From Bugula neritina (lineage: Eukaryota; Bryozoa; Gymnolaemata; Cheilostomatida; Bugulidae), in contig OZ037767.1 of assembly GCA_964035545.1 (NCBI GenBank), positions 16,729,581 to 16,793,580 on the forward strand: DNA of 64,000 nt, in the 5' to 3' direction. This document shows positions 1 through 64,000 of the stretch, piece by piece. The position numbers and the translations under genes are program-made. How positions within the stretch are numbered: position 1 is the stretch's first letter; the number at the start of each line of letters is the position of its first letter. The notes beneath the pieces are model-generated. The model had not been told where the DNA came from, made no database searches, and worked only from the letters and a program-made list of their open reading frames with translations.

Positions 1-619
1 TACAGCTATGCACAAATAGTATAACGCTGGAGCTAGTACAAATTGCATGTTTGTTTGTTTGTTTGTTTTTATTTTGTCGCAGTCGGGGAAAAAATTAATT
101 GAGAAAAAATAAACAAAATGAGAGGGCCTATGGCGCAATAGCACTGTAGCTAGTCGAGGCACCAAAGGTACAGAAGCTTTTAAAAGACTGTGAATATAAA
201 GGGGTTGGAGATAAGTAATCACACTGTCATGCGTTGGGCTATCAATATTACAAATATGTTTGTTTTTCAAGACAAATTGATTTCCAATTCTTCCAAATAT
301 ACACAACTGAAAAATGATTTCCACACCCCACAGGTACTAATTAGATGGATGGTCAATTATAACTAAAAGTACCACCTGAGAAATATTGTGTTTAATTTCA
401 TATTTTTGTGAACATAACAAAACTGAGTGCCAAATCAGAAGTTTATTTAATACTGAATAGTATTTAGTTTAGAGTAAAGAATAGATGAACAGTGGGATAA
501 TAATTAATGAAAAGTAAAAGAAATAGTAATTAATATAATACACATAGTTCAGTTATACGGAGTATTCATTAATACTGTGAGATTAATAGCACCAGGTTCA
601 TTGGAACATGTAGATACAC
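1..619. other. AT-rich 3' flank of the casein kinase gene
   Basis: I see no coding exon here. A short TTTG repeat lies near 50-68. TTTATT at about 441-446 reads AATAAA on the minus strand, a plausible polyadenylation signal for the casein kinase gene whose stop codon is at 620. Confidence 0.5.
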
Positions 620-3600
620 TCAGGTAGAAGGCTGGTCGGGGGTGGAAGGTAGGGTACTCAGTCTATCACTACTGGCTGTTCCATCGAGGAGTGTAGTTGA
701 CGGGGCGATGACATGCTGACTATTTCCGTCAGCTCCAGGTGAGGCACCCTGCAGAGGGACTGAAGATGAGTGGAACACAAGTATATATGAAAGAAGTAGA
801 ATGTTAATATAACAGTACTACACCAACAAGGTAGCTTATGTATTGCCTATAGCACTTGTTTATAATACTTTTACCCAACAGAGTTCAAGACTTTACTGCA
901 TCAAGTACCCAACAACACGCATCATCATAATTATCAGCAAAACCGATGAATTGCAAAAACCACCAGCAATGAGTGTAACAGCACGCTGGTTCTGATAAGA
1001 CTTTGGTCCCTAAGTGCACAGCACATGTGACATAGATACAACACACTAGAACCTGAGCTAACATACTTACAGATTTGATCAGCTTCCAGTCAAACACAGA
1101 GTCATACGTATAACCTAGTCTGTGAGATAATTTGCGAAACAGCTGACGAAGATGGGTGTAGTTGGGCTTGTCAGCGAACTTCAACGATCGACAAGAGGTT
1201 AGACAAGTTGCGAACTCGGCTACAGATTTAAAAGCAATATACGCATCCATTTGAACAAAACACAAAAATCATGAATATTCTGAAGTATAAGAGAATTATT
1301 AAGTGATTGGAAAGAATAAAAGAAAATTTAGCTAAAAATTTTTACTTACAAGGGAAACCTTTACATAACTCCTCTAATGGAGTGGATATTTTCTTGTCGA
1401 AAATATGTCTTTTAGCTGCTGCTTTGAGTCCCTGCCACGGTAAACGTCCTCTCAGAAAGTATATCAACATGTAGCCTAAGGACTCCATATCGTCTCTACG
1501 ACTTTGCTCTGTAAGGGAATAACTCACTATACGACAGGTGGTGTCACTATGTGACAGGTGGTGTCACTATATGACAGGTGGTGTCACTATATGACAGGTG
1601 GTGTCACTATATAACAGGTGATATCACTATATGACACATGGTGTCACTATATGCCAGGTGATGTCACTATATAACAAGCAGTGTCACTATATGACAAGTA
1701 GTGTCACTATATGACAGGTGGTGTCACTATATGACAACTTGTGTCACTACATAACAGGTACGTGTCACTATATAATGCTTATATCAATATATTACAAGAA
1801 AATGGTGTCCTCAACGCAAAAAAGTTAGAATAAAAAGTACTGTTATGATGGTATTCTGGAACTATACATACCGATACCAAGATGTGTGTTTAGACTGACA
1901 TATCTGGGTGTTCCAGCAAGGTTCTTGTTCTCTCTATAAGCAATATGCTCACGTGTCTTACTATCTCTATACTTCTTAGCTAAACCAAAGTCAATAACAT
2001 GTACTAGATTGTCTCTCTCTCCAAGTCCCATCAGGAAGTTGTCTGGCTTGACATCTCTGTGTAGGAAGTTTCTTGAGTGAATATATTCCACTCTGCTTAT
2101 CTACAATATATATAATTACTTATCTATAATATAATATATAGTTATTAATATATAATTATATAATATACAGTTACTAATATATAATTATATAATATACAGT
2201 TACTAGTATATAATATACAGTTACTAGTACATAATATACAGTTACTAGTATATAATATACAGCTACTAGTATATGATATACAGCTACTAGTATATAATAT
2301 ACAGTTACTAGGATATAATATACAGCTACTAGTATATAATTACATAATATACAGTTACTAGTATATAATATACAGTTACTAGTATATAATATACAGTTAC
2401 TAATATATAATATACAGTTACTAATATATAATATACAGTTACTAATATATAATATACAGTTACTAATATATAATATACAGTTACTAATATATAATATACA
2501 GTTACTAGTATATAATATACAGTTACTAGTATATAATATACAGTTACTAGTATATAATATACAGTTACTAATATATAATATACAGTTACTAATATATAAT
2601 ATACAGTTACTAATTTATAATATACAGTTATTACTCTATGGTATACAGTTATTAATATATAATATACAGTTACTAGTATATAATATACAATCACAAATAT
2701 ACATTACACAGTTACCAACCCTAGAATATATTATGCGAATACCAACTTTACTGAGTAGGTATATGCAGTAACAGCTAGTGCCTAATGCATGGCTATAAGT
2801 ATTATATATAAACTACTCAACTCAATGCTATAGTACCACATTGTTGAAGCATTCAACACCACTTGGTAAGTAACTAATAATCTCTTGCCTTATTACCCTA
2901 TGCAGTTTGAAATAACTGGAGACTAGACACAACACACAACTATTATACTATTTATTCACAGAACATCAGCATGGCATTACCATAACAGCTACCATATTCA
3001 TAAGCTCATTCCACTACCACCTCAACATGCCTAGAGAATGAGATAGTCATGTGACTTCTACATGATTAGTCATGTGACTTCTATATGACGAGATAGTCAT
3101 GTGACTAACCAGCTGATCAGCCAACAGTAAAACTGTCTTCAAAGAGAACTTCCTGTCGCAGTAGTTAAATAAATCTTCCAGACTCGGTCCGAGAAGCTCC
3201 ATCACCATTACTCTGTAATCACCCTCTATACCACACCATCTGATGGCCGGTATTCCCACTGTAACATACAAAAGTAGTATTTGGAGTTGTGTTAGCTTAT
3301 AATGCGTGTAGACTTGTTGCTTTGGGTTAGAGAAAATATCTACTAGTTTTTTGGTACACATAATCATTTTGAATTAACTTCCATTGTACTTACCACCCCC
3401 TCGCAGTATTTTATATATTTTACTTTCAATATGGAGTTGGGGGTGCTTCGATTTAACACATTCTAATTTCACACCAACCTCTTCCCCTGTTGAAACATCA
3501 GTGCCTATAAATTAGGAATAAAAAACTGTTGAATGAAGAACAAAAAGGTTATGTAACAAATTTTAACTTCTTACAGGGTGTTACAGTTGAGCAATCTGAC

Positions 3601-4038
3601 CTTATGTCTATCATAAAACATGTGTTAGGATAGTATTGGCTAGAATAATGGCAATGATACATATTCGTGATTAGTTATAGCCAGCTTAGAAATATAATAC
3701 ATGTTTGTGCGTAGAAAAAAATGTATTAAGACCAAGATTAAAACACACTGTTGATAGCTACACCTTGCCATACTAACTTGCAATCTTACTCCAAGAAACC
3801 GTAAATTGTGAAGGTTGCAAAATAAAGTTAAATTGCGTGTGATGGCAATGATGATAAATTATTTGAGTATAATGACAGGTGCAGTAATGGTTTGTGGTTT
3901 CTAATATCTCCATTACTGCACCTACCTCTAAAAAGACAGATTGTAGAAGTGTACAAACCAACCGAGGTAGATGTCTCCAAAAGATCCACTGCCAATTTTT
4001 TTGCCTAATCTGTATTTACTACCTACCCGTAGTTCCAT
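620..4038 (-). CDS. CSNK1D/E: casein kinase 1, delta/epsilon type
   Basis: Ser/Thr kinase of the CK1 family, acting in the cytoplasm, nucleus and centrosome in clock, Wnt and division pathways (family knowledge). Seven coding exons join in frame: 4038-3963, 3504-3394, 3258-3110, 2100-1872, 1508-1350, 1219-1071 and 748-620, giving about 333 residues. The glycine loop is GSGSFG, the lysine is K38 in VGVKLE, HRD gives D128 and DFG starts at D149, the same numbering as vertebrate delta/epsilon. LGPSLEDLF and [13 protein letters not shown] are CK1 signatures, and the segment after the kinase core (SEFATCL...FDWKLIK) is delta/epsilon-like, not alpha or gamma. The C-terminal tail is only about 45 residues, against roughly 120 in vertebrate delta. 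The start ATG is the usual MELRVG position. Minisatellites fill introns at 1526-1760 and 2105-2700. Confidence 0.93.
1526..1765. repeat. 20-bp minisatellite in CK1 intron
   Basis: About 12 tandem copies of a 20-bp unit (consensus TATATGACAGGTGGTGTCAC) occupy the intron next to the acceptor of exon 1350-1508. Copies differ by a few substitutions. Confidence 0.9.
2105..2700. repeat. 21-bp minisatellite in CK1 intron
   Basis: About 28 copies of a 21-bp AT-rich unit built on ATATACAGTTACTAGTATAT. The array starts within a few bases of the acceptor of exon 1872-2100 and runs through much of the 1-kb intron. Its open reading frames are repeat artefacts. Confidence 0.92.
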
Positions 4039-4789
4039 GCCAGGAACTTAATGGGGTAGGATGGCTCACGCTTTTAGGAATGAAGAGACTGAAAGTATAT
4101 TATTTATTATTATATTATACTATTTATTTTTCTCATTTGCTCAAATCTGCTTAAGTTGTTAAGAGACTTAATTTGACTTCAATTTTTCTGTAAATGTAGC
4201 CTAAGCCTGAACTATGAATCATGAAATTTGAGTAGGTTAAACTTAATGTTATCCAATAAACTGACAAAGTTGATTTGCCCAAGAACCAGATTGAACAGTC
4301 ACTTAGCACTCATAAGTCATAGTCATACTGATACTAAACAAAATTAAAATGACAATCATAATCATATTGATAATCAATTTAATTTTTATCAAAACCAGTA
4401 ACACAATTACATTAATTATACAGATAATAATCATAATTATATTATTGTTATTAATATCTATATTAATATTATTGTAATGTCAATGAATATGATAATTCAT
4501 AAATTGATTAAATGATAATTGCTAATAGTAATACTAATAGCAATTGCAATTAATATTATATAACACATAAAATTTTAAAATTAAATTCAACAATTATCAA
4601 GTATTATTTTATTTATTAGCTGCAATAAAAATTATTATCAACTGGAATTTATAAAATTGGATGAAATGGCAATACTAGGATTAAGTGTGATAGTAACTAT
4701 AGATACCTGATCATTTTGTAAGACGTTAGAAAAAGCTCAGAGTATGGAGTGACTGACAGCAAGGTTTGCGAAAATATTACGTAGCCTAG
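4039..4789. other. intergenic, upstream of CK1
   Basis: AT-rich with degenerate simple sequence (ATAATCAT/ATTATTAAT runs at 4320-4620). I see no exon or element. It holds the CK1 promoter by position only. Confidence 0.4.
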
Positions 4790-7155: not shown

Positions 7156-10100
7156 TTATCCAGTAGTAACCAACTGACTGGGAGAATCTCCAGAACTTGT
7201 AGCCTTGGTTCTCCTATCAATTACAGAAGTGTATGTAGTTTGTAGTCTGAGATCAGAACCTAACTGTTCATTAACATTACGGGACGGTGTGCTTGCCCCT
7301 CTCACTGGCTGAATTAAAGCTGACACTTTTTCATGAAGAATACTAGACTCGCCAGTTTTAAGAACTTCAGCTAAATCATAGAATCGGTGGTTATATTCCG
7401 TGAGTTTCCTTTTCAGATCTTCAAGACTACGTGACTGTTCTTCGATAAGATCTCCCTGAGCAAGAAATTGAGGAGACAACTTTGAGCAGGCAAGATAACT
7501 CCAAAAAGAAAGAATGAATTTTAAAAAAATGCAGCAGAGGAAAAGTTTGTGGCAATAGGATGGAAACGAATATTTCAGAATATTTAGAGGTTAGAGAAAA
7601 CTGAATTGAAAATTAGAATCTCACCTGTTTAGTTATGATACGTTCACACTCAGTTACTCTGTCACTCAGAGCATCAGTATGACTGTCAGTACGACTGCGA
7701 GAGTGACTGTCAGTTACAGAGTTACTAGTAGAAGGTGTAGAATGGTCAAATAAAACAAACTTTCTTCTGGAACATTCCACTGCGGGAGACGTTTTCCTTC
7801 TCTTCAGAGCAGATCCAAAGAGTGGAGACATGCTTATTCTTTTTCTAGCTAAAAGGAGTGTATACAGAGGGGTAATTTAGCTAGCTGAAAGGAGTGTATA
7901 CAGAGGGGTAATTATCTAGCTGACATGGAACAAAGGAGTGTATACAGTGAGTGGGACAATTTATCCCTAACTCAGTTTAATATCCATAGCAACAGAGAGA
8001 ACACTGCAGTGGAGTGCAGCAGTAAATTGACAAGTTCTATTGATCAGATATAAGCTCAATGTATTGTCCAGCTCATGATTTCCAGAATTATCTGCTTGTG
8101 TAAGGTTCAAACCTTTATATGTAATACTCACAGAGTCCTGCTTTTAAATAAGAGCGGACACAGTCACATAACCAACAGTCACACACAATGTACAGTACCT
8201 CCACACATAGACTACACACAATGTACAGTACCTCCACACATAGACTACACACAATGTACAGTAGTTACCTCCACACATAGACTACACACAATGTACAGTA
8301 CCTCCACACATAGACTACACACAATGTACAGTAGATACCTCCACACATAGACTACACACAATGTACAGTACCTCCACACATAGACTACACACAAGGTACA
8401 GTAGTTACCTCCACACATAGACTACACACAAGGTACAGTAGTTACCTCCACACATAGACTACACACAAGGTACAGTAGTTACCTCCACACATAGACTACA
8501 CACAAGGTACAGTAGTTACCTCCACACATAGACTACACACAATGTACAGTAGTTACCTCCACACATAGACTACACACAATGTACAGTACCTCCACACATA
8601 GACTACACACAATGTACAGTAGTTACCTCCACACATAGACTACACACAATGTACAGTAGATACCTCCACACATAGACTACACACAATGTACAGTACCTCC
8701 ACACATAGACTACACACAATGTACAGTACCTCCACACATAGACTACACACAATGTACAGTACCTCCACACATAGACTACACACAATGTACAGTACCTCCA
8801 CACATAGACTACACACAATGTACAGTACCTCCACACATAGACTACACACAATGTACAGTAGTTACCTCCACATATAGACTACACACAATGTACAGTAGAT
8901 ACCTACACACATAGACTACACACAATGTACAGTACCTCCACACATAGACTACACACAATGTACAGTAGTTACCTCCACACATAGACTACACACAATGTAC
9001 AGTACCTCCACACATAGACTACACACAATGTACAGTAGTTACCTCCACACATAGACTACACACAATGTACAGTACCTCCACACATAGACTACACACAATG
9101 TACAGTAGATACCTCCACACAGACTACACACAATGTACAGTAGTTACCTCCACACATAGACTACACACAATGTACAGTAGTTACCTCCACACATAGACTG
9201 AGAGCTTAGTTCAGGTTCGGGAATGTCTACAGTCACTCCACCTGGTAGTACAGCCACCCGGTCTTTCAGCAGCTCCTGGTTAGACACGTATTACTATATT
9301 ACTACTATATTATATTATTATGATACTAAAAAAATATATTATACTGTTATATTATATTATGCTATATTGTTGTATTACACTATATTACACTATACTACAC
9401 TATACTATTATATTATATTAATATATTGTTGTATAATACTATATTACTATAGTATTATAATATATTGCCACGTCATTGTGCAATATTAATATATTAATGC
9501 CATATTATTATATTGCTATATAATGAGACAATTTAATATATAATAAAAAACAAATATTATAACATTCAATTCAATCTCACCAGTTTAAGTGTTGGCAATA
9601 TTTTCTCTTCAAAGTGCTCCATAGCCATTGAAGAAATGTCCCTCAGTTCCATGAGCACCTCGTGAGAGCGGGGTGGCTCTTTTATAGTCCGTACCATCCT
9701 CAATACTCTCATTAGTTCATCTAGAACCTGTAAACATACACAATAGGCATAGAGTTTATTATAAAATATACAGACACGCCATGTACTATCTCATTATATT
9801 ATTATTACACTAAAACGCACATTCTGTTGATTAGACATACCAAAACACATATTCTGTTGAATAGACACACCAAAACACATGTGCTGTTGAATAGACGCAC
9901 CAAAACACATGTGCTGTTGAATAGACGCACCAAAACACATGTGCTGTTGAATAGACGCACCAAAACACATGTGCTGTTGAATAGACGCACCAAAACACAT
10001 ATTATGTTGAATAGACACACCAAAACACATATTATGTTGAATAGATACACCAAAACACATATTATGTTGAATAGACACACCAAAACACGTATTCTGACTT

Positions 10101-12022: not shown

Positions 12023-15000
12023 CAAGTCTGGCATCCAGTTCAGAGTCTGAACGTGGAGGTAATTCTCCTCCACCCTGTAAGAGAAGGAGATTTTTTGGTA
12101 GCACTAGCAGTACTGGTTCTAGTTTGACAACACTGACTAGTCCTCCTGGCGCAGCTGCTACTTGTTCAAAACATATAAAAGAAATGCACGAGGGAAATCC
12201 AAATGGGTCAAGTTCAAGCTGTGAAAATCAAAATGGAGACTCAGAAAATGAAATTTCTTCCAAAGGAGACTCTAGCTTAGTAAGGTCAAAATGTGTAAAG
12301 ATGGGTGCCTTTCCTCTGACACACAAAGACAAGGACATAATAAGACTGATTGGACAGTATTTAAAAAACACTGGCTTTGAGTAAGTTTGAAAAATATTAT
12401 GCCTTTTGCCTATGTCTTGCACAATAATAGTAAAATGATTTCAGCTGTGTTTTTATAGAATTTAGAGTTTTCTTCAGGCTTATGTGCTCACAATTTTTTT
12501 AATAGTCGAGTTTTTGGTTGATTTCTATTTATTAATTATTGATGAAATATTCTTCTTATCAGTTATTAATATATGTGTAAGTATAACTCAACTAATGACT
12601 TCATTTGTGAGAGTTACTACTTTGCCTAGTTTAAAGTTGTTGATGAAGTAGGACACTGCAGTTACTGATGTTTAATTGCAGGCAAACAGCGGATAAGCTG
12701 GTGGATGAATCTGGTTTGTATCTCGAGCACCCAGTAGCAACTCAACTCAGATCTCATATTTTGGCTGGCAACTGGACCAAGGTAGTTTTACTTATATAAA
12801 CAACATTAACTGCTCTTACCCTTTAAAGTCTATTACTTACTGATGTAAACTTACATATTCTTTGGTGTTTAGGCTGAGGCTAGTTTGGCAGAACTACACA
12901 AACTCCTTTCATCTGATGAGTCAATGATGAAGGTACGTGTTGGTACTATGATTTGTTACTAAATCGCTGAGTGTTTCTGACACTTACGTTGAAGTGAGAC
13001 TCACACTGATATTTTGGGCTGAGAAACTCTTTGCACTCATGTCAAGTGAGAAGTCATTTACGCAGGTAGAACTCACAGTGATACTGAGTGATAAGGTAGC
13101 AACTCATAGTGATACTGAGTGATAAGGTAGCAACTCATAGTGATACTGAGTGATAAGTTAGCAACTCATAGTGATACTGAGTGATAAGTTAGCAACTCAT
13201 AGTGGTACTGAGTGGTGATCTTGAATTAAAAGTGATGCTGATATTTTAAAGTTCTTACTTTTGATTGGAAATTATTTAACTTTTTGTAGGAGATGAAATT
13301 TAGTGTACTAAAACAGAAGTATTTAGAGATGGTAGAAGACGGTAGATTAATAGAGGCGATACATTGTCTCAGATATGAACTGACCCCTCTCAAGTTCAAC
13401 ACCGGCCAAGTACACAAACTCAGCACGTGAGTATTTATATTCATTGCATACTCGTTATTGCAAGACTCGGCTAGTTTTAAATTATTATTGTGTTCCTTAT
13501 GTAATTTATTAAACCATATTGAAAAGCATTACTCTTCTAAGTTTTCTCAGCTTGAGATTTAGTCATAGTACTGAGTCAGTTTTCTTTGTTAGATACGTAA
13601 TGTATGACAGCTTAGATGAGTTGAAAGAGATGGCAAACTGGGCTGGCAAAGGCTATGCATCACGGCAGAGTTTAATGGAGCATTTACAGAGTAAGTCTTT
13701 TCTACCAACTCATTCACTCTGCTAACTCATTCACTCTACTAACTCATTCACTATACTAACTCATTTACTCTACTAACTCATTCACTCTACTCACTCATTC
13801 ACTCTACTAACTCATTCACTCTTCTAACTTATTCACTCTACTAACTCATTCACTCTACTAACTCATTCACTCTACCAACTCATTCACTCTACTCACTCAT
13901 TTACTCTACTAACTTATTCACTCTACTAATTCATTTACTCTACTAACTCATTCACTCTACTAACTCATTCACTCTCTCATTCATTCACTCTACTAACTCA
14001 TTCACTCTACTCACTCATTCACTCTACTCACTCATTCACTCTACTAACTCATTCACTCTACTAACTCATTCACTCTACTCACTCATTCACTCTACTAACT
14101 CATTCACTCTACCAACTCATTCACCCTACTAACCAATTCACTTTACTAACTCATTCATTCTACTAACTCTTTCACTTTAATAACTATCTAATACTCACTT
14201 ATTATCTTTTGTAGCGTTTTTGCCGATTCACATTGTGTTGCCCCCAAAGCGTCTGGACAAGTTGCTAGACCAAGCTGTGAGTCATCAGATCCACCAATGT
14301 AAATACCACAACAGATCTCTCTCTCCTCATTTATACGATGACTTTTCTCTCCTCACTGATCACATCTGTGCTAAGTAAGTAGTCTATGTGCTAAGTAAGT
14401 AGAGTCCTTGTTAAGTAAGTAACACCTGCAATATACTTACTTGTATTAACTTGTGTGATGTAAATCCATAGTGAAGTCGTGCACGCGAGTATTTTCTTTA
14501 AAGACTGATTAACTCTGTCTAAACAGCAGATGAATAGCAGATGAACTGATCAACAAATTATGTAGTAATACAGCAAACTGACCTAACTGACAAGTTTAGT
14601 ATTTTAACCATTAGACAGTTACTTGTTATGAACAGTGCTATGAATTCTTTGAGGTGACTGTATACTGTACAATGTTATAATGACACGTGACTTCTGCCTT
14701 TAGAGACAGCTTCCCTTCCCGCTGCACACATATATTAACTCAACATGGCGACCAGGTCTGGTTCTGCAGATTCTCTCCAGACGGGTCTCTCCTAGCAACA
14801 GGTAAACAAGTTTCACTTCTATCTTAGCAACAGGTAAACAAGTTTCACTTCTATCTTAGCAACAGGTAAACAAGTTTCGCTGCATCCTCACAGTCTCCTA
14901 GCAATATGTAAACAAGTTTAGCAAACAAAGGATTTGAATGTTTGCTATATGATGATTTTTAGTTACATAGGAGAGGAAAAACAACTCCTAAAACAAAGAA

Positions 15001-17965
15001 ATGGATTTGCTCATGTGTGATGTAACTATTTCATTAATTTTTGCTATTATCACTGATATGTTGTTATATTATGATTATTATACGTAAAGTTGTTGGCCCT
15101 CTAAGACATGACAGTATTACACTGTTTGTCCGACAGGTTCTAAGGACGGGATGATATACGTCTGGTCTATAGATCAGCACACCTATGAGTTCAGTATAAA
15201 GTACAGTCTAGAGGGACACACGTACGGCGTGGCCCACCTAGCCTGGTCTCCTGACAGCAAGCACATCGTAGCCTGTGGTCCAGACGAGTGTGGGGATGTC
15301 TGGATATGGGACATAGAGGTGTGGGCTCCTCAAAACTATCTTCCCATGTTTTAAAGATCTTGTTAGCTAGGGTGTTAGCCGAGTGCTGTTACAAACTACT
15401 TACCCTGATTGCACGTTACATGTTACTCGCCTTCACTGTAAGTACAATTGTACTTACACCGATTGTAAGTCACATACTGTACGTCTGTTTAATAATCTAG
15501 ACGGGAGAATTGAAGGTCCGAATGAGTCATTCAACAGACGACAGTCTGACTAGCGTTTCCTTCCACAAAGATGCACGGAGATTTGTTACGGGAGGAACTA
15601 GAGGTCAATTTTATCACTGTGTAAGTATCGGTGTAGAATGTGTAAGTATAGACATACAGCGTGTAAGTATAGACATACAGTGTGTAAGTATAGACATACA
15701 CTGTGTAAGTATAGACATACACTGTGTAAGTATAGACATACACTGTGTAAATATAGACATGCAGTGTGTAAGTATAGACATACACTGTGTAAATATAGAC
15801 ATACAGTGTGTAAGTATAGACATACACTGTGTAAGTATCGGTGTAGAATGTGTAAGTATAGACATACAGCGTGTAAGTATAGACATACAGTGTGTAAGTA
15901 TAGACATACACTGTGTAAGTATAGACATACACTGTGTAAGTATAGACATACACTGTGTAAATATAGACATGCAGTGTGTAAGTATAGACATACACTGTGT
16001 AAGTATAGACATACACTGTGTAAATATAGACATGCAGTGTGTAAGTATAGACATACACTGTGTAAGTATGCTGTCTCCTACTGCATAATTTTGATGAAAA
16101 TGGGGGTTTCACTTCATTTACTCTCTCATGTACAACCATAACGAAAGTGGACAACTCCTAAATCATTTCATATTCGGTTTTATTTGAAATTTCTAAAAAC
16201 TTTTGCTGCGTTTATGATTGATTTCCTTTTTGTGTTATTAGTATATATTAAATATTTATTATCTTATTGAGTTATTTTAGAACAGTTTTGAGGATGTAAT
16301 AATGAGAAATTATCTGCTCATGCCCATGTTGACAGGATCTGGAAGGTAACGTGTTGGACTCATGGGAAGGGATCAGAGTTCACTGCGTCGGCTGCCTCAA
16401 TGATAACAAAACAGTCCTGGCTGCTGACTCTCACTTTAGACTTCGTTCTTACAACTTTGAGGATCTGAGTGACCAGCACTTGTGAGTACTACTCGGTACA
16501 GTCACTAGTACTACTCAGTACTGTCACTAGTACTACTCGGTACTGTCACTAGTGCTACTCAGTACTGTCACTAGTGCTACTCGGTACTGTCACTAGTGCT
16601 ACTCGGTACTGTCACTAGTACTACTCAGTACTGTCACTAGTACTACTCGGTACTGTCACTAGTGCTACTCAGTACTGTCACTAGTACTACTCAGTACTGT
16701 CACTAGTGCTACTCAGTGCTATCACTAGTACTACTACTACTACTAGTACTACTACTACTATTACTACTGCTACTACTACTGCTACTACTACTAATACTAC
16801 TACTACTACTACTAATACTACTACTACTATTACTACTGCTACTACTACTACTAATACTACTACTACTAGTAATACTACTAGTACGACTATTACTAATGAT
16901 CCTGACTATACTAATAAATATGTTGAGTACAACCTCTACTACGTAGTATTAATTATTATATCATATTCTGCCAGCACTCTTATCTCGACTGTGCTATTGT
17001 AGATTACAGGAAAGTCACTCTATTGTCTCGTTTACCATCAGTGAAGATGGCCGGCTGGTGTTACTCAACATTGACTCAGAGGTTGGTCTATGTTTCTGTA
17101 TTACGTAATTTCTAGCATGACCTAGCAGAATGTTCTCGTGAGATAACTCTGAAATTACACTAATCGTTTCATGATTCTTCAGTATTTATTGTTGAATCGT
17201 CTAAAGATGATGAGATGAAGTTTATATGATCTGTGCAGGCATATCATTTCAACAAATATTTTACTATTAAATTTCAGACTATCTTTTTGCCTAAACTATA
17301 AAAAGATGAAATTTTTCGATATTATATTTAATACATAATCTAATAATATAGCATGAATAACTTGATTTCCAGGGACATTTAGGAAAGAATGCATAAACAA
17401 TTTCAGTCATCACTTGTCATGTGTATGTATCATAGTTCAAGACACACGTTCTAATTATAGCACATTACATAAGATAGCGCTGTCTCTTTCAAGGGTATCC
17501 ACATCTGGGATCTGGAGAACAACTGCATGGTACGAAAGCTGCACGGCCTGAAGCAAGGATACTATGCAATACACTCTAGTTTTGGAGGTGTGAATCAGGA
17601 CTTTGTAGCTAGCGGCAGCGAAGGTCAGTTAAAATTCACTTATTAAGTTGTTATCAGCAACAGTTTATAGAGTCGCTCTTGATAATATTGTTTCAACTGT
17701 ACACTGTGTAATATACTGTGTAGCATATTGTGTTACAGATAACAAGGTGTACATATGGCACATTGAGAAAGAGAGCCCCATTTGTGCTCTGGAAGGACAC
17801 ACTCAGACAGTCAATTGTGTTCACTGGAACCCGGCTAATCCGTCAATGATAGCTAGTGTTTCCGACGACTCTACAATCAGAATATGGGGGCCTGCCATGC
17901 CCGCCACCGATAGTCCATCTACCAGTCGGTCACCGTATACCTCAAGATTACCACAAGGTAGATAG
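12023..17965 (+). CDS. WDR26: WD repeat protein 26 (first exon unresolved)
   Basis: LisH-CTLH-WD40 subunit of the GID/CTLH ubiquitin ligase (family knowledge). Exons joining in frame: about 12023-12380, 12682-12781, 12873-12932, 13290-13426, 13593-13690, 14215-14374, 14704-14801, 15137-15318, 15501-15620, 16336-16481, 17003-17081, 17494-17623 and 17739-17965. LisH ([12 protein letters not shown]), CTLH ([29 protein letters not shown]) and WD repeats ([45 protein letters not shown]) appear in the WDR26 order. [18 protein letters not shown] and CFGG-like [16 protein letters not shown] match closely. The first exon shown has no upstream in-frame ATG after a stop at 12019, so an acceptor near 12022 and an upstream first exon are expected. 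AATAAA lies at 18347. Several introns carry minisatellites seeded at donors. Confidence 0.92.
13083..13215. repeat. 31-bp minisatellite in WDR26 intron
   Basis: About four copies of a 31-bp unit (GCAACTCATAGTGATACTGA plus GTGATAAGTTA) in the intron before exon 13290-13426. Confidence 0.85.
13707..14190. repeat. 17-bp minisatellite in WDR26 intron
   Basis: About 27 copies of ACTCATTCACTCTACTA, starting some 15 bp after the donor at 13691 and ending shortly before the acceptor at 14214. The array is nearly the whole intron. Confidence 0.95.
14793..14920. repeat. 32-bp repeat copying the exon end and donor (3-4 copies)
   Basis: The exon ends CTAGCAACAG at 14801, followed by GTAAACAAGTTTCACTTC. 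The 32-bp segment TAGCAACAG + GTAAACAAG... is repeated with near identity at about 14825 and 14857, and in a decayed form (TAGCAATATGTAAACAAG) at about 14899. The exon end and donor are part of the unit. Confidence 0.93.
15621..16062. repeat. 21-bp minisatellite of donor-like units in WDR26 intron
   Basis: About 21 copies of a 21-bp unit, GTGTAAGTATAGACATACAC plus T. The exon ends CACTGT followed by GTAAGTAT, and the same ACTGTGTAAGTAT junction recurs in every unit. A variant CGGTGTAGAAT marks the start of two roughly 215-bp higher-order blocks (15617-15832 and 15833-16050). Confidence 0.95.
16486..16720. repeat. 22-bp minisatellite in WDR26 intron
   Basis: About 11 copies of GTACTACTCGGTACTGTCAC plus TA, beginning four bases inside the intron, with the donor sequence GTGAGTACTACTC as its first copy. 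It grades into an ACT triplet run at 16721-16890. Confidence 0.92.
16721..16890. repeat. (ACT)n trinucleotide run
   Basis: Imperfect ACT/ATT triplets following the 22-bp minisatellite. Predicted poly-Thr or poly-Leu frames are artefacts. Confidence 0.9.
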
Positions 17966-53700: not shown

Positions 53701-56700
53701 TCATGTTTACAATAATCTTTCACATTAAAATCAAATCAGATGGACTAACCCCAGTGCTTTTCGTTCTTTTACTGCACGTCACATTCTTCCACTGAATTTC
53801 TCTGACTTCAAACAGGTTTTGGATTTCTTCACATTCTTGTTGAGTTGTGGTCCCTTGAACACAGGGTTTAGAAGTGAGACAACTCTTAATAATAAGCTAA
53901 CCATATGGATTAGCTGTACTATATTTTAAACACTTTTACAATTTTCTGTTTATAGCAAAATACTATAAAGTTACAAAATACTATAAAGGACCTTTGCCAA
54001 GAGAATAAGTTATAAAAAATATTCACTTTATCAATTATCACGTAATCAAGCGTCCTAAAATTGTTTAAAAAACGTATCCATGAAGTTAAATCAAGCAAAG
54101 AACTTTCACTCCAACTTTCAGCGTTATGAAATCATGTGACTGACTATGAAATCACGTGACTGATTTTTTAGTCATGTGACTGACCTGCGCCTCTTCCGGT
54201 AGCCTCACAGCAGCCCAACTCTGATTCTTTTGCACTATACAGTGCATCTCTGTAAAGGAACATGCAGAGAGTTTGTGTTAAGTATATAAAACATAATAGT
54301 AGGTAATCATATATGTATATTTGCTATATACTACATCTGTTTGAGGCACCTCCCAATAAACCGAGACATGCAACATAAGAAAATGTAAGGAAACATTCTA
54401 ATAAGATGAGAATACAGTATCATGACATGTACCTTAGTAGGAAATGTTTGTCATTTCTCAAACAAGGAGCGTATAAAGCACCCCCTTTGACTAGTTTCTC
54501 CCGCGAAGGCCCCGCCCACATGTTGGGTGGTACGAAGTGCTCTATTGTTCTCACTCCACTCCAAGTTACAATCTCCTCTGAATCAGAAGAAAACAAACTC
54601 AAAACGTACAACACTGACATTGCTACTGGGGCTCAACACGAGACCTCTGGCTTGCAAGCAGGTGTGTTAACCATTACACCACAGGGACTACTGAGTAAAG
54701 TCAACACTAAGCTACAGTATACCACACCACAGAGGATATAAACTAAGCTTGTAGACTAATCTCTGACTCACCTACTAGCAGTCTCTCTGACGCGAGTCGG
54801 GGAGGGACAACTCCAGATGAAGCGCAGAGCATAGCGATGGCTATAGCCTGTATAACTGTGATGGTGTGAATAAACCACGGGGTGTACACAGGTAGGGCCT
54901 CCAACTTCTGTCTTATATCAGCTCGGCTAAATCCTTTCTGTAGAATCTTTGGTCCTGAAAAATACGTACCACATTGTAAATCCTGAATGGCTTGTGTACA
55001 TACTGACAATTAGCCCTGTCCACCTACACACAGTGGTCAGGGTGGAGGGTCACAAGGATACGAACTTTCCTCATTCAATTACATCTCCTTGTGCATATTC
55101 CTTGTACTTACTATTTTTACATACTTTATATACAGAATCTATGTACAAGTTTACTTCATATACTTACTCTATGTACTTACTTCATGTACTTACTTCGTGT
55201 ACTTACTTCATGTACTTACTCTATGTACTTACTTTATGTACTTATTTCATGTACTTACTCTATGTACTTACTCTATGTACTTACTTTATGTACTTATTTC
55301 ATATACTTACTTCATGTACTTACTCTATGTACTTACTTCATGTACTTAATTCGTATACTTACTTCATGTACTTACTCCATGTACTTACTTCGTATACTTA
55401 CTTCATGTACTTACTCCATGTACTTACTTCATGTACTTACTTTACTCACCTGTATATACAGCATCAGTGAGATAATCTTTTATTCTCTGAAATCTTTCGT
55501 GTAGAGACTTCTTTGGCTCATACTGAGAGGAATAATATTCTAAAAGATAGCCTTAGTTTTAGTAATAGCTTTGGAGCCGCCAGACTATATAAATTATTAG
55601 TTATTAGAGTCCTATCTTATGCACCAAGGCTACCAAAAAATTATCTACATAAAAATATTTCATTGCAGATTGTACATTCAAAATACAAGTAAATTGAAGG
55701 TGCAGTGCAAATTTGGAAAAGCCTGTAATTTTTATGAAAAACACTACAAAAGAAGTTATAGTCTCGTGAAATTTTTCAATTTGAGCTTTAAACCAAAATT
55801 TATGAAGACAATTAAAAGCTTGGGCCATTGAAATTTTTCTTTTAACGTACCCCAGTGGTACTTTGCTAAAACAGTTTTTTCTATACAAGACGAATTCACT
55901 TGTACAGATAAAAAGCTGTGAATAATCAGACATGACATCTACAGACAGGAAATGACACCTTTTGCCTTATACAGCGCGTCATCAATACGGTCCCTCTTCT
56001 CTATCAGCCTCTGTCTGAGTAGAGAGATCTGAGGCTCTATTTCCTCTTTCTCTAGTCTATCCAACTGCCTCTTGTTAGATAGGTACAGCTGGTAGGCCTC
56101 CTTCCCGTACACAAAGTCACTCGGGTTGACAGTTTTAGGGAGTTTCACAGTCGGCAGGTAGAAGCTGGCATCTTGTCTACAAATAGAGAAAGGCTTGTGT
56201 ACGCTGAATTTTAAAAAATAGTTTTAGGAAAACATGTAAGCAGCTGAATAACAATAAGTAGGACTTCTAACTACAAAATCAACATTTAAGAAAACCTCAA
56301 TCAACATGGCGACACATTTCTATCAAGGCTATGAAATATTCTCAGGCAAATATATTACAATATATAAGTTTAGTTAACTATATTAAGTAACAACTTAATA
56401 TATAGAAACACAGATCGTCTTAATGTTCCAGTATCCTATCAGTAGAAGTTCTTGTGGTAATTGAGATAAAATAATGAAAATTTTACCCGATTTGCAAAAC
56501 TAAGAGGCAAAGTTTCACTTTCACCACTATACTTATATACTGAGCATATCTACTAATGGTTAAAACCTTTAGATACAAAACAAGGTGCTATATAATATAA
56601 CCTTAGATAATAGCATATATCCACTGCTACACTCTACCACATATATAATAGTTAGTACAACTTACCCTGTGTGGTGCTCATCTGTCTGCTTAGAACTTTT

Positions 56701-59420
56701 CTCTATATTCTCAGCTGATATACAAATACAAAGAATTTGATTACCACATAAACATATTATTATAGTATTAGTATTAGCAGATCTGGTTTGCTTTAGTGAA
56801 AGTGAATTAAAAGACTTCAGACAAGTTTTTACAAGCTTTTTGCCCTTTGAATCACAGCATATGCTATTATACGATACAGCTTTTCAATATGGCATCACAA
56901 TGTAGCATCATATCTACACAGAATCTGCAGTATGATACTATAGCTATATTATTATACTGTCTCTAAGAACTCTGCGTATTGATATAAAAACTTAAACTAC
57001 ATCTTATACTAAATATAATGTATTCCCTGTACTTACACACATAACATTCTACACAACGCACTACACAATGTACTACACAACGCACTACACAATGTACTAC
57101 ACAACGCACTACACAATGTACTACACAATGTACTACACAACGCACTACACAATGTACTACACAACGTACTACACAACATACTCCCATACACTGGTTCCGA
57201 ATACACAGGATTCTGCTGCCCTCTGCTCTGCACATTCAATTTAGCCTCTTCTTCAAAATTCAGCAGACGTGTGGCGGCCCCTCGCACATCCTTGACCTGC
57301 TTCCTCTGCAGCACTTTCTCTGTAACCAACTCCTTCGCATCCCATTTCTCTGCATCTGAATTCATCTGAAAGAAATTTCTATCAACTTTTGGAACTACTT
57401 TACAGATTAGCAGCTTTATTCAGTTTTAAAACATACAGCTTGAGGGAGAATATGGGCAAGAGGGAAAGTTGATTGCTCTAAGGTACACTAAATACTATAC
57501 AGTGTCTGTAGAGTATGCATGTGGACAGCACATTTAAAATAGACAAAACTTATTAATAGCTAAAATAAAATTTTTATATCTTCTTTCAAACATTATGATC
57601 ACTCTTAACGTGAAACTGTTGCAAAAAGAATAAATTTATGGCAGTAGTCACGATAACTGAACAATTTCTGGATAATTAATTTACTACACAGCAGCAGAAA
57701 GTCAGCAAATCTAACTGTATAATAAATATACTGGATTAAATCCAAATACATGCATGTCGGAGTTCTTAATCAGCTATATATTATTACATTATATTATATA
57801 TTACACTATTATATTATATTTTACTATATTATATATCATTATAATTATTATAATATATTTTATTATAATATGTCATATTTTATTATATCATATTATATAA
57901 TATCATATTATATTATATTATATTAATTAACTCAGCCTGAGGGTTAAGCTGACACAAACACTGCTCACCTGAGGGTCAGATCTGGAACTCTTAGCCGGTT
58001 TCCTGGAGCTGGTGGCAGCGGCGTTTGACATGTCGGTGAAAGTGATGTGTTCGTCATCTTTCTCCAGGAAGGGCGTGGCTAGAGTGAAGTAGAACAGATC
58101 GTCATCATGGTCAGAGTTGTCTTCTTCCTTCAGAAACATCTCCCTCCAAGTATTAGTACAATAGTATATCGCCATTGCATGCGCGAGAGTAGTATATATG
58201 GTATAGCAAGAGCTGTATACTGTATCATACTCTAGTACACTATAATATTATGTGCTATAGCATACCCTAGTATGGTATAATTATATATGCTATAGCATAT
58301 AAGAGTATACTATAATAGTATGTGCTATAGCATATAAGAGTATACTATAATAGTGTACGCTATAGCTTATTCTAGTATACTATTATAATACATGCTATAG
58401 CATATCCCGGTATACTGTAATAGTATACTTACTCTACATCACTGTGTAGACTGAGGAACTTACTCTACATCACTGTGTAGACTGAGATACTCTACATCAC
58501 TGTGTAGACTGAGTACTTACTCTACATCACTGTGTAGACTGAGGTACTTACTCTACATCACTGTGTAGACTGAGATCATCCACCGCACTATTCTTTCTAC
58601 CAAACAACTTCCTGTTGCTCCTCATTGCCTGCAGTCTGTTGGATGAGGTGACATTTGACCTTGACATTCTCGGCGAGGTCGACAAAGCCAGCGCCTGTAA
58701 CTGCACCAACGTAAATACTATACAGTTACACTCTACTGAGTTATACTATACAGTTATACTTTTGACTATATACAGTGATACTATTCACTATAATATACAG
58801 TTGTACTATTGACTATATACAGTGATACTATTCACTATAATATACAGTTACACTATTGACTATATACAGTTGTACTATAGTCTACCGGTTTTGAAACTCC
58901 TTGCAAATCCTTTTCAGTTAATCTTCTTGCTGCTTCGGACAGCTCATTGTATAAAAGGGAAGGCTCCTGTATAGAATATAAAGTAGCAGTAATAATATCT
59001 ACAACAGTGTACGATACTATATTATGTTGTATATTACTTCAATGACTGTAACTAATATTGTATTATATATACGCATAGTTGATATATTATACTGCATTGC
59101 GAGAATATCACATCACGGTGTATTCATCAGGTAAACTAAGAGGGTGGAGGTGGGTTTAACAAACCTTCAGTTAAACAATCGTCGTGAAATTTTCTAAAAA
59201 TAATTCAAAACTTACCAAAAATGAAACAAAAAACTGAAACTCAAATCATAAATTTACCAACCGTTGATCTTCTGTAATAAAATATCAATGTTCTCATGAA
59301 ACAGTGTAAAGGTTTTAAGTATAATTATAATAAAGACAACTATGTAGAAATCTTGTATAGAATATATATAAATTCAGTTTACCTGGTTCTTTTGTGTTTA
59401 GACTTGGGCGAGGAAGACAT
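50766..59420 (-). CDS. RHBDF: iRhom, inactive rhomboid protein
   Basis: Catalytically dead rhomboid of the ER/Golgi; iRhoms escort ADAM17 and control EGF-family signalling (family knowledge). Exons in frame: 59420-59383, (59271-59262 tentative), 58966-58886, 58700-58552, 58143-57969, 57365-57182, 56714-56666, 56176-55959, 55539-55450, 54954-54772, 54249-54185, 53884-53750, 53406-53224, 52619-52461, 51943-51737 and 51023-50766; about 727 residues. A cytosolic N-terminus (about 350 residues) precedes the first membrane helix (WFIHTITVIQAIAIAM). The Cys-rich iRhom homology domain has KPCCLGGRGQC and LEHCSQARCGHDIC. The rhomboid core follows with FWRIPLSLIYHEG, VAGWLKMAAMYF and LLQSWPLVE. Where proteases have GxSG this has GSGG, and the catalytic His is Asn (TNMAGALFG). 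The first two exons are the weakest part. Confidence 0.88.
52926..53110 (+). mobile_element. tRNA-derived SINE-like element in iRhom intron
   Basis: Starts with a tRNA-like head: A box TGGTCTAGAGGTTAGAGC and B box GGGTTCCAACCC spaced as in tRNA genes, then a non-tRNA body (GATGTTAGGAAGAGCATCC...). No clear cloverleaf with a mature acceptor end, so a SINE is more likely than a functional tRNA. The 3' limit is approximate. Confidence 0.6.
54625..54692 (-). mobile_element. tRNA-like sequence, probable SINE head
   Basis: On the minus strand it reads TCCCTGTGGTGTAATGGTTA, then an anticodon-arm-like CTGCTTGCAAGCCAG and a T-arm-like segment. The A box is good and the B box poor. It may extend into flanking sequence down to about 54480. 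A decayed tRNA-derived SINE is likelier than a working tRNA gene. Confidence 0.45.
55165..55449. repeat. 13-bp minisatellite abutting an iRhom donor
   Basis: About 21 copies of TGTACTTACTTCA. On the minus strand the intron starts GTGAGTAAAGTAAGTACATG and the array repeats GTAAGTACATGAA, a strong donor-like core every 13 bp. Confidence 0.94.
57038..57181. repeat. 12-bp minisatellite abutting an iRhom donor
   Basis: About 12 copies of TACTACACAATG / CACTACACAACG. On the minus strand the intron starts at GTATGTTGTGTAGTACGTTG, so the array begins with the donor itself. Confidence 0.94.
57770..57930. repeat. AT-rich low-complexity sequence
   Basis: TATTATATTATAT simple sequence in an iRhom intron, ending about 40 bp from the donor of exon 57969-58143. 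Confidence 0.8.
58190..58425. repeat. about 60-bp AT-rich repeat in iRhom intron
   Basis: About four diverged copies built around GTGCTATAGCATA and AGTATACTATAATA, upstream of the exon at 57969-58143. Confidence 0.75.
58430..58580. repeat. 31-bp repeat copying an iRhom exon end and donor
   Basis: On the minus strand the exon ends CTCAGTCTACACAGTGATGTAGA, in two parts CTCAGTCTACACAG and TGATGTAGA, followed by GTAAGTACC. The same junction recurs four more times with small changes (GTAAGTACTCAG, a shortened copy, GTAAGTTCC). Each copy keeps coding-like exon sequence plus a strong donor. Confidence 0.95.
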
Positions 59421-60133
59421 GTTGAAATGTAGTGCAACTTCACACAAGTTTCATATTAAATATCCAAAACTATTTATCCCAAGCGCTACACACATCTGCT
59501 GTACTGAACAGATGGACTTCTTCCCCTTATAGCTGCCACAAGACTGTACATACTGTACAAGTTACTGTCACAGCGTACTGGCGTTACGTAATACTCCATG
59601 AGTTTTGCATTGTCTATTAAATTCTACAACTATGTTTGTCCTCAGCATATCTATTTCAAAGTATTGAGATTCAAAACTATATTTACACGAACATCACTGG
59701 CAAAAATCACTGATATAAAAAACCCGCTAATAATAAAAAGTTCTTAAAATACTTTATCTGATAACAGACACATAATATTTCAACAGACACATTAGATGCA
59801 ATGCAGCTCTAATGTACAATATACACGATACTATACAATATACATCAATCATGATAGTACTGTGCATTATACATACCTCATGTATAACCATTAGACTAAC
59901 TAACTACACTAACCAGATGGTGCAGATTAAACACCAGAATGTCTGTCTAGGAGTCACTAAACTCCTCTGAGACCTCTACACAGCCTCTTTCTACTACTCA
60001 AGATGAGTTTCACATTAACGAATGAGTGGATTAAATTAGCTATAGAATAGGCACTGTATGTACACTATATAACATTAGCTAGCAGTTGGTAAGTCATTGT
60101 GTATGTCTGTAAATAACTACACGTATCTAAATG
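59421..60133. other. intergenic between iRhom and GATB
   Basis: Holds the iRhom 5' flank and the GATB 3' UTR. AT-rich; no exon, repeat array or element recognised. Confidence 0.4.
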
Positions 60134-60487
60134 TTACATCATAGAATCCAGGTAGCTCTGTAGACCTCGAATTGCGTCACTCGGCTCAATTCTATTACAG
60201 GACAGAGTCATCACGGCATTCAGTAGCAGAGAAAACGATTTTTTATCTCTTTTCTTGCAACATTTCTTAAAGGCCTACAAAATTTGAAAGAATTATTGTG
60301 CATTGTGTTACCACAATTACTAATGCTGGTATTACCACTACTACTACCACTACTACTGATACTAATACTACTACTACCACTACCACTACCACTAATACCA
60401 CCATTACCACTACCACTATTACTACCACTACCACTACTACCACTACTACTACTATTACCACTACTACCACTACTACCACTACCACTA

Positions 60488-60547
<60 letters not shown>

Positions 60548-63500: not shown

Positions 63501-63611
63501 CAGTGCAAGTATTGACGAGCCGAAGCATCTGCTGCACCTCCCTGACGAAAGCTGCAGCTTGTTCTCCGTTAGTAAAGTCAGGTTTGGTTACTATCTCCAT
63601 GAGTCCTATAC
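60134..63611 (-). CDS. GATB: mitochondrial glutamyl-tRNA(Gln) amidotransferase subunit B, 3' part
   Basis: GatB of the mitochondrial GatCAB amidotransferase, which converts Glu-tRNA(Gln) to Gln-tRNA(Gln). Eight exons join in frame: 63611-63489, 62939-62826, 62641-62557, 62001-61785, 61632-61484, 61052-60974, 60736-60605 and 60274-60134. Diagnostic segments are [64 protein letters not shown] and [10 protein letters not shown], followed by the helical GatB/YqeY C-terminal domain. The N-terminal half, including the mitochondrial targeting signal, lies beyond the window's right edge; the first exon here starts in phase 1 at 63611. It runs in the same direction as iRhom. Confidence 0.94.
60300..60602. 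repeat. (ACT/ACC)n triplet run in GATB intron
   Basis: About 300 bp of ACT, ACC and ATT triplets, ending at the donor of exon 60605-60736 (minus strand GTATGTTAGTAGTAGTGG). Confidence 0.95.
60838..60960. repeat. 26-bp minisatellite in GATB intron
   Basis: About five copies of TAATACTGAGAGTGACAGTG plus TATAAC, near the donor of exon 60974-61052. Confidence 0.88.
62310..62556. repeat. 13-bp minisatellite abutting a GATB donor
   Basis: About 18 copies of GTGACAGCTATGA and close variants. The array ends at the donor of exon 62557-62641 (minus strand GTACTCTCACTCCTAGCTGTC). Confidence 0.94.
63340..63480. repeat. purine-rich low-complexity tract
   Basis: GGTAGAAGTGGAAGT-type purine tract directly before the donor of exon 63489-63611. 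On the minus strand it becomes a long pyrimidine tract. Confidence 0.7.
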
Positions 63612-63651
63612 CTAGACAAACAGACATGTTAAGCATTACACATCGCAGGTA

Positions 63652-64000
63652 ATGCATCTCACTCACTCACTCACTAACTTACTCACTCACTCGCTCGCTC
63701 ACTCACTCACTCACTCACTCACTCACTCACTCACTCACTCACTCACTATCTCGCTCACTCACTCACTCACTAACTTACTCACTCACTCGCTCGCTCACTC
63801 ACTCACTCACTCACTCACTCACTCACTCACTCACTCACTCACTATCTCACTCCCTCACTCACTTACTCACTCCCTCACTCACTCACTCGCTCACTCGCTC
63901 ACTCGCTCACTCGCTCACTCGCTCACCCACTCACTCACTCACTCGCTCACTCATTTACTCACTCACTCACTCACTCACTCACTCACTCACTCACTCACTC
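63652..64000. repeat. (ACTC)n tetranucleotide microsatellite
   Basis: About 350 bp of ACTC repeats with GCTC, ATCT and ACTT variants, continuing past the window edge, in the GATB intron upstream of exon 63489-63611. Confidence 0.97.

What the first reader, a model, noticed from the sequence alone, without database searches (positions are those of the whole stretch)
1..64000. Intronic minisatellites are repeatedly seeded at 5' splice sites
Across seven genes, most long introns are dominated by minisatellites of 11-37 bp, and many begin exactly at, or contain, the donor. At least five units include exon sequence plus GT (WDR26 14801, KIF23 20793 and 24928, iRhom 58552, FBXO28 9185). Others begin with the donor hexamer (WDR26 15621, KIF23 26427, 28220 and 28890, paralogue B 41176, iRhom 57181 and 55449). 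Units differ completely between introns, so this is not one spreading satellite but a recurrent local process that copies donor junctions. I know of no named system like this. It could be a route for intron lengthening, or for making new introns, in this lineage.
Basis: partly seen in the sequence, partly recalled or inferred. Interest (0 to 1): 0.9.

Follow-up and report, generated by a model that had tools for sequence, protein, structure and literature searches.

The report
Tandem repeats copying splice donor junctions
In a sea-mat-like animal, short repeats fill many introns and sometimes copy the exon edge together with its splice donor many times over, but in the sample studied this was hardly ever seen at the other end of the intron; a similar oddity was reported before in amphioxus.

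Summary
The arrays are real. The genome is a bryozoan's, probably Bugula neritina (inferred). Without any repeat finder, 6 of 91 homology-supported introns hold a copy of their preceding exon tail plus GT (0.05 expected); none holds AG plus the following exon head. Donor junctions really are copied, and acceptor junctions hardly ever.

Seeding at donors is less clear. In these introns the nearest array edge lies within 60 bp of the donor in 31 and of the acceptor in 31; arrays run into the exon at 8 donors and 0 acceptors, against 14.7 expected at each. Within 10 bp, supported window arrays show a donor excess (16 of 32, 6.4 expected) and outside ones none (4 of 19, 4.2 expected). Arrays filling at most half an intron keep a donor excess (4 of 19, 0.7 expected).

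Best reading: repeats grow through compact introns up to the splice signals; spill-over at donors is tolerated, at acceptors purged. Mild donor preference stays possible. Precedent: amphioxus 'mirages'. New: donor-only bias, a first frequency, a shared unit grammar.

The parts
8181..9199 (-). FBXO28 intron array, 37-bp unit x 29; runs 15 bp into the exon at donor 9185|9184
   Evidence: junction weakly supported by homology
14786..14878 (+). WDR26 intron array, 32-bp unit x 2.9; holds 16 bp of exon (..GCAACAG) plus GTAAAC at donor 14801
   Evidence: junction LLATG|SKDG matches WDR26 in PDB
15615..16069 (+). WDR26 intron array, 21-bp unit x 21.7; donor 15620 (TGT|GTAAGT) inside the first unit; open in the exon's frame for 465 bp
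   Evidence: junction QFYHC|DLEG matches PDB WDR26; the gene finder had misplaced this donor
20704..20813 (-). KIF23 intron array, 34-bp unit x 3.2; runs 21 bp into the exon at donor 20793
   Evidence: junction within 2 residues of Watersipora KIF23
20287..20492 (-). KIF23 intron array; runs 5 bp into the exon at donor 20488
24610..24935 (-). KIF23 intron array, 30-bp unit x 10.9; runs 8 bp into the exon at donor 24928 (ACTAAG|GTAG)
25851..26427 (-). KIF23 intron that is nearly all array (22-bp unit x 26.2): starts at donor 26428|26427 and stops 6 bp before acceptor 25844
23044..23114 (-). KIF23 78-bp intron, 29-bp unit x 2.5, reaching the acceptor (gaps 7 and 0)
28005..28218 (-). KIF23 intron array, 18-bp unit x 11.9, 2 bp inside donor 28221 (GAG|GTGAGT)
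28342..28902 (-). KIF23 first-intron array, 16-bp unit x 34.8, at donor 28891 (MKPPN..AA|GTAAGT); exon tail recurs 12/12 in the intron
   Evidence: start codon and exon read by eye
58426..58575 (-). iRhom-like intron array, 31-bp unit x 5; runs 24 bp into the exon at donor 58552
   Evidence: finder model only, weak iRhom1 hit
57049..57182 (-). iRhom-like intron array, 12-bp unit x 11.2, at donor 57182 (1 bp of exon)
   Evidence: finder model only
55103..55444 (-). iRhom-like intron array, 13/26-bp unit, 5 bp inside donor 55450
   Evidence: finder model only
41196..41403 (+). 'Paralogue B' intron array, 11-bp unit (GTAAGCAGTAC) x 18.6; starts 20 bp inside donor 41175
   Evidence: gene identity not established
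13701..14185 (+). WDR26 intron array, 17-bp unit x 28.6; starts 10 bp inside the donor, ends 29 bp before the acceptor; units carry CTAAC, branch-point-like (recalled motif, not tested)

Best explanation
These are intronic minisatellites in a bryozoan genome whose growth favours one kind of sequence (rich in TAC, ACT, GTA and AGT words, poor in AA and TT). They arise and expand throughout compact introns until little is left but the splice signals (shown: many array introns collapse to lengths below any array-free intron of the sample). When an early tandem duplication happens to include the exon tail and the donor, the array carries many donors, often as good as the first. I infer that this is tolerated because splicing keeps using the exon-proximal donor, and because using a later copy mostly meets an in-frame stop, so that mistakes are destroyed. 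The same event at an acceptor puts an earlier AG in front of the true one, shifts the splice and is removed by selection. Donor-only copying is then mainly a filter on a general process, perhaps with a mild donor preference on top. Shown: arrays, donor-only crossing, crowding at both intron ends, stops, grammar. Inferred: which donor is used, and the selection.
For: Homology-supported introns (91, 48 with arrays): nearest array edge within 60 bp inside donor 31, acceptor 31; crossing 3-40 bp into exon donor 8, acceptor 0; expected at the inside rate 14.7 each (P for 0 = 4e-7). Finder introns (344): crossing donor 11 (two of them copies of one duplicated stretch), acceptor 0. Exon tail plus GT copied in 6 of 91 (0.05 expected), AG plus exon head in 0 of 91. 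Collapsed to one unit per array, 19 of 48 array introns are shorter than the shortest of 43 array-free introns, 88 bp. In-frame stop 1-39 bases into the intron in 9 of 11 donor-copying cases. Later donor copies often score as well as the first in the crossing arrays. Grammar: AA and TT about a third of other intron DNA, TACT/CTAC/ACTA/GTAT 4-5 times enriched; AA+TT falls with copy number, Spearman -0.35. Amphioxus mirages are reported not to disturb splicing.
Against: More array starts within 10 bp of donors than random placement gives: finder introns 22 of 54 (6.7 expected) in the window and 8 of 38 (3.2) in 240 kb; supported window introns 16 of 32 (6.4; 10.1 or 13.8 with 6/30 or 6/50 bp protected, p 0.0001 and 0.06). 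Arrays filling at most half of the intron, which cannot lie there by filling alone: finder 6 of 28 and 5 of 33 (0.7 each; acceptors 3 and 1), supported 4 of 19 (0.7, p 0.003; acceptors 2, p 0.15). Finder introns have more edges within 60 bp of donors than acceptors (38 to 30). One finder intron holds a copy of AG plus exon head (C1 53195-53659), and one supported intron a copy of its exon head without AG (L035). Amphioxus has acceptor-side mirages. WDR26 15620 and KIF23 20793 stay open for 465 and 243 bases. No RNA data. Textbook competition between equal donors often favours the intron-proximal one (recalled), opposite to what is needed.
Confidence: 0.55

Rival explanations
1. One reading: something about donors (U1-bound or transcribed DNA, R-loops, breaks) seeds tandem duplication there, so donor junctions are copied by a targeted process.
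For: Excess of starts within 10 bp of donors among finder introns (22 of 54, 6.7 expected; 8 of 38, 3.2 expected) and for arrays that fill at most half of a supported intron (4 of 19, 0.7 expected); start density 9-19 per kb at -2..10 against 0.8 per kb deeper in window introns.
Against: No excess in supported introns outside the window (4 of 19, 4.2 expected). Array edges crowd the acceptor side equally within 60 bp (31 and 31). Donor crossing is below, not above, the neighbouring intron rate.
Confidence: 0.22
2. Some of these introns were born as arrays: tandem duplication of an AG|GT stretch in an exon made donor and acceptor at once, and the intron is the array.
For: Introns that are nearly nothing but array: KIF23 26428-25844 (gaps 0 and 6), KIF23 23122-23043 (7 and 0), ZSWIM8 in the C2 block (L013-L022 joined), 86423-86017 (-11 and 0), L036:2476-3402 (0 and 16). 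Such intron gain is documented elsewhere (PMC3443670, passages; PMC3087553, passages).
Against: AG plus exon head is copied in 0 of 91 supported introns, so exon-derived arrays reaching the acceptor were not seen. Intron positions among nine kinesin paralogues are too scattered to date them (array-rich 1 of 18 shared, array-free 2 of 25; four of the nine models had in-frame stops); the shared array-rich case (L027 with L034) is an old position holding an array.
Confidence: 0.12
3. Artefact: gene-finder bias, repeat-finder edges or GT-rich composition make arrays look anchored at donors, or the assembly is wrong.
For: Arrays are rich in GT and AG words; the finder misplaced at least one donor (WDR26 15603 for 15620) and joined neighbouring genes. 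Assembly error was not tested.
Against: Protein homology places most of the junctions used; the test without a repeat finder agrees; sense against antisense 49 to 1, although the four outside donor-near supported arrays gave 18 to 4.
Confidence: 0.05
4. Tandem donors are kept because they help: spare U1 sites strengthen exon definition or guard against mutation of the first donor.
For: Later copies keep donor scores equal to or above the first one in several crossing arrays (for example ZSWIM8 first 8.3 bits, copies 12.5).
Against: Equal scores are expected from array homogenisation alone; most donor-near arrays hold no copy within 1 bit of the real donor.
Confidence: 0.06

Closest known systems
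'Mirages' of amphioxus (Adh3, globins BflGb6 and BflGb9, troponin C, PGBD5)
   Same: Minisatellite-like tandem copies of an intron-exon boundary, units of 10-160 bp, copies carrying splice signals, several unrelated genes, an intron-gain model proposed (PMC3087553, abstract and passages; PMC3902484, one passage).
   Different: Amphioxus shows copies at both 5' and 3' boundaries; here arrays cross donors only, 0 acceptors in 91 supported or 344 finder introns. Here an estimate of frequency (6 of 91 introns), introns filled almost end to end, a shared unit grammar, and another phylum. RNA and length polymorphism, reported in amphioxus, were not tested here.
Intron gain by tandem genomic duplication of AGGT-bearing exon stretches
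   Same: Tandem copies of exon sequence with AG|GT beside an intron (PMC3443670, passages).
   Different: No new intron shown here; the acceptor side with its exon head is not copied (0 of 91).
Internal tandem repeats at exon-intron boundaries of human segmental-duplication genes
   Same: Units averaging 30 bp, some at exon-intron boundaries (PMC2812944, passages).
   Different: The human cases change transcripts and can form novel introns; here the predicted proteins align across the crossed junctions with at most a few residues of difference.
Ordinary intronic minisatellites
   Same: Local units, array growth, homogenised copies.
   Different: Usually GC-rich and mostly outside splice junctions (recalled); here TAC/AGT-rich, filling whole introns and overlapping donors.

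Membership tests
Amphioxus 'mirage' type of boundary repeat | Tandem unit spans an exon-intron boundary | tested here: met
   8 of 91 homology-supported donors crossed by 3-40 bp; exon tail plus GT copied in 6 of 91
Amphioxus 'mirage' type of boundary repeat | Unit length 10-160 bp, copies carry AG/GT splice signals | tested here: met
   Units of the eight crossing arrays 21-71 bp; donor scores of copies
Amphioxus 'mirage' type of boundary repeat | Both 5' and 3' boundaries affected | tested here: not met
   0 acceptor crossings in 91 and in 344 introns; one unverified finder case, L033:5523, would have counted on both sides and was dropped
Amphioxus 'mirage' type of boundary repeat | mRNA is spliced normally despite the copies | not testable with these tools
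   No RNA; protein alignments continue across the junctions
Amphioxus 'mirage' type of boundary repeat | Length instability between haplotypes or cells | not testable with these tools
   One assembly only
Intron gain by tandem genomic duplication | Intron absent at this position in relatives | tested here: inconclusive
   Kinesin paralogues share too few positions; no bryozoan relative genome was available
Intron gain by tandem genomic duplication | Duplicated exon sequence at both ends of the intron | tested here: not met
   Exon tails are copied (6 of 91) but AG plus exon head in 0 of 91 supported introns; 1 of 344 finder introns
One dispersed satellite | The same unit in many introns | tested here: not met
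   83 of 125 arrays share no 16-mer with another; one 27-base unit searched genome-wide, exact matches only, was found only at its own place

The most novel reading that the evidence does not exclude
In this lineage a donor-linked duplication process, coupled to transcription or U1 binding, seeds minisatellites at 5' splice sites across the genome, lengthens introns and now and then makes new ones, so that a sizeable share of the genome's introns has passed through a tandem-donor stage.
Probability: 0.16. Interest if true: 0.85.

Novelty: new variant of a known kind. Interest (0 to 1): 0.55.

Why it matters
If about one intron in fifteen in an animal carries tandem copies of its own donor (6 of 91; 4 of these 6 lie in the array-rich window, and the blindly chosen kinesin introns gave 1 of 37, so the genome-wide figure may be lower), the genome is a natural experiment on how the spliceosome picks one donor among near-identical ones a few tens of bases apart, and on why acceptors are not multiplied in the same way. 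It turns a curiosity known from a handful of amphioxus genes into something that can be counted, and gives a concrete prediction: acceptor copies should survive only when the unit is long enough to carry its own branch point. The shared grammar of the units also points to an unexplained sequence preference in minisatellite growth.

Tried and rejected
First gene finder over-predicted tiny exons; penalties were changed. The iRhom protein search returned nothing at its threshold. Hairpin potential of units as cause of growth: no excess over dinucleotide-shuffled units (125 arrays, mean z -0.13, p 0.7). Intron age from kinesin paralogues: uninformative. A genome-wide count of paired AGGTAAGT against a control word of equal dinucleotides was planned but did not complete. 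One spreading satellite: rejected. Assembly error: not tested.

Sampling limits. The supported set was picked by eye from printed alignments. ZSWIM8 was checked because the finder had shown crossed donors there, so the outside set is not fully blind; the kinesin loci were chosen by kinesin exons only and gave 1 crossed donor in 37 introns. Dropped rows: L030 (bad model, no arrays), most introns of L032 and some of L027, L029, L031, L033, L034 and L035 (weak models), and L033:5523 (unverified; it would have counted as one donor and one acceptor crossing). In the window, KIF23 introns 27887-27288, 27256-26533 and those after 20013, and introns of FBXO28, WDR26, CK1, AHA1 and GatB without a clear alignment, were left out; iRhom and the 'paralogues' were left out wholly. 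One typed acceptor (28324) was off by a base and was flagged by the script. Finder and supported sets overlap. The two C1 crossings (23898, 44179) are copies of one duplicated stretch.


Full report
What the genome is. The window lies in an animal genome of 215.8 Mb in 295 contigs. Its FBXO28 and KIF23 are closest to those of the bryozoan Watersipora subatra among the hits listed (48% over 94% of the query; 67% over 95%). Bugula neritina has a 216.00-Mb assembly (PMC11480708, abstract), so the species is probably that one; this is an inference. Named genes confirmed: FBXO28, WDR26, KIF23, a casein kinase I (delta-like), AHA1 and GatB. An inactive rhomboid is weakly supported.

Checking the observation. 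Tandem Repeats Finder lists 116 rows; tandem repeats cover 24.9% of the window against 2.7-5.9% of three other stretches totalling 240 kb. So the window is unusually rich. For 91 introns I used protein alignments, judged by eye, to support the junctions: 45 in the window and 46 outside (37 in kinesin loci chosen only for having kinesin exons, 9 in ZSWIM8, which was chosen after the finder had shown crossed donors there).

Is it more than chance? A test that needs no repeat finder asks whether the last 12 bases of an exon recur in the next intron: 6 of 91 supported introns against 0.10 expected; the mirror test at acceptors gives 1 of 91. Asking for the exon tail followed by GT gives the same 6 introns (0.05 expected), for AG followed by the exon head 0. 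Among 344 gene-finder introns the tail test gives 12 (0.60 expected) and the head test 1 (0.50 expected); with GT or AG they give 9 (0.15 expected) and 1 (0.05 expected). Within 30 donor-near arrays strong donor-like sites are 49 sense to 1 antisense, though only 6 arrays hold two or more and the best score per array does not differ by strand (19 to 11, p 0.2); 43 arrays far from donors give 8 to 5, and other intron DNA of the window 39 to 37. Copying of donor junctions is therefore real and directional, and concentrated in a minority of arrays.

Is it seeding at donors? Here the evidence is mixed. Among finder introns of the window 22 of 54 arrays start within 10 bp of a donor or cross it (6.7 expected under random placement), against 7 at acceptors (6.8 expected); in the other 240 kb 8 of 38 (3.2 expected) against 2. 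In the supported introns the window again shows 16 of 32 (6.4 expected; 10.1 if 6 and 30 bp at the intron ends are protected; 13.8 with 6 and 50 bp, p 0.06), but the outside set shows 4 of 19 against 4.2. Arrays that fill at most half of the intron are the sharper test, since filling cannot bring them to the donor: finder 6 of 28 and 5 of 33 (0.7 expected each; acceptors 3 and 1), supported 4 of 19 (0.7 expected, p 0.003) against 2 at acceptors (p 0.15). Counting the nearest array edge on each side in the supported introns, 31 have it within 60 bp of the donor and 31 within 60 bp of the acceptor; within 10 bp inside it is 12 and 8; in the finder set 38 and 30, and 19 and 9. Arrays crowd both ends of introns, with a modest lead of the donor end. 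The clear difference lies at the border itself: 8 arrays run 3-40 bp into the exon at donors, 0 at acceptors, where 14.7 would be expected on each side at the rate seen just inside the intron (acceptor P = 4e-7; donor P = 0.04 for being that low). The finder set gives 11 against 0; two of the 11 are copies of one duplicated stretch.

How the introns fill. Collapsing each array to one unit leaves 19 of 48 array introns shorter than 88 bp, the shortest of the 43 array-free introns. So arrays have not just been added to a normal intron; they stand in for most of it. Some introns are nearly pure array: KIF23 26428-25844 (22-bp unit, 26 copies, gaps 0 and 6), L036:2476-3402 (21-bp unit, 43 copies, gaps 0 and 16), and the ZSWIM8 intron at C2 block 86423-86017 (gaps -11 and 0).

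What a wrong choice of donor would do. In 9 of 11 donor-copying cases examined the exon's frame meets a stop 1-39 bases into the intron, so use of a later donor gives a premature stop. The exceptions are WDR26 15620 (open for 465 bases with a 21-bp unit) and KIF23 20793 (243 bases). In several crossing arrays later copies score as well as the first donor or better, so sequence strength does not tell the spliceosome which copy to use. That exon definition favours the exon-proximal copy is my inference. That acceptor choice runs from the branch point to the next AG is established knowledge (recalled), and it would make short acceptor copies harmful. Amphioxus boundary repeats are reported not to disturb splicing (PMC3087553, passages).

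Shared grammar. In the arrays of the supported introns, with nearly equal base composition, AA and TT are a third of their level in other intron DNA; TACT, CTAC, ACTA and GTAT are four to five times enriched, while AAAA, TTTT and TTGA are depleted 17- to 57-fold. Over all 125 arrays the bias grows with copy number: AA+TT 0.158 at 2.5-4 copies, 0.074 at 16 or more. Units still differ: 83 of 125 arrays share no 16-mer with another.

What is known. The nearest named thing is the amphioxus 'mirage': tandem duplication of intron-exon boundaries in Adh3, globins, troponin C and PGBD5 (PMC3087553, abstract and passages; PMC3902484, one passage). The first report (Adh, 2002) I know only by recall and through those citations; a look-up by a recalled identifier failed. 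The idea that such repeats make introns is stated there, and tandem duplication as a route to introns is reviewed in PMC3443670 (passages). Human repeats with units averaging 30 bp occur at exon-intron boundaries too (PMC2812944, passages). Searches of the open-licence library for bryozoan introns with tandem repeats or minisatellites listed no paper on this (listings only). Crossing of donors only distinguishes this case from amphioxus, where both boundaries are copied.

Verdict. Real, more than chance as donor-junction copying, only partly supported as donor seeding, with a named precedent. It is a new variant of a known kind: in another phylum, donor-only in this sample, frequent enough to count, with a testable rule for acceptors. 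The genome-wide count that would have helped to settle the seeding question did not complete (one search was the last try).

Noticed in passing
125 arrays in the window, C1/C2/C4 blocks (L003-L026) and L027-L036: Minisatellite units of unrelated introns share a grammar: AA/TT a third of normal and TACT/ACTA/GTAT words 4-5 times enriched in supported introns, stronger in high-copy arrays; no extra hairpin potential.
   Followed up: partly
G000 small contigs such as C213, C189, C210, C52, C281, C292: Kinesin genes there are open only if several TAA and TAG codons are read through, with no TGA in these six: these contigs look like a ciliate living with the animal, not the animal itself (inference).
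   Followed up: no
window 15615-16069: The WDR26 array has a 21-bp unit whose consensus holds GTAAGT and stays open in the exon's frame for 465 bases: distal donors would add 7-residue repeats instead of a stop.
   Followed up: partly
L003-L012 (C1:4000001-4100000): Stretch rich in long retroelement-like reading frames, next to a duplicated receptor-phosphatase-like gene (both by eye); two of the donor-crossing arrays (23898, 44179) are copies of one duplicated stretch.
   Followed up: no
window 29349-30065 (+) and C1 block 96078-96121: A non-LTR-retroelement-like frame fragment (by eye; no Pfam hit); the same 22-bp tandem word (CATTCGATC..) occurs inside it at 29596-29639 and in the C1 block.
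   Followed up: no
window 37175-37229: A short array TGTTTACAGGTA(A)GT holds both an acceptor-like TTTACAG and a donor-like GTAAGT, inside a finder intron.
   Followed up: no
acceptors with an array within 20 bp (16 of 91 supported introns): In 9 of the 16 the nearest upstream AG is only 13-19 bases before the true acceptor, against a median of 31 elsewhere.
   Followed up: no
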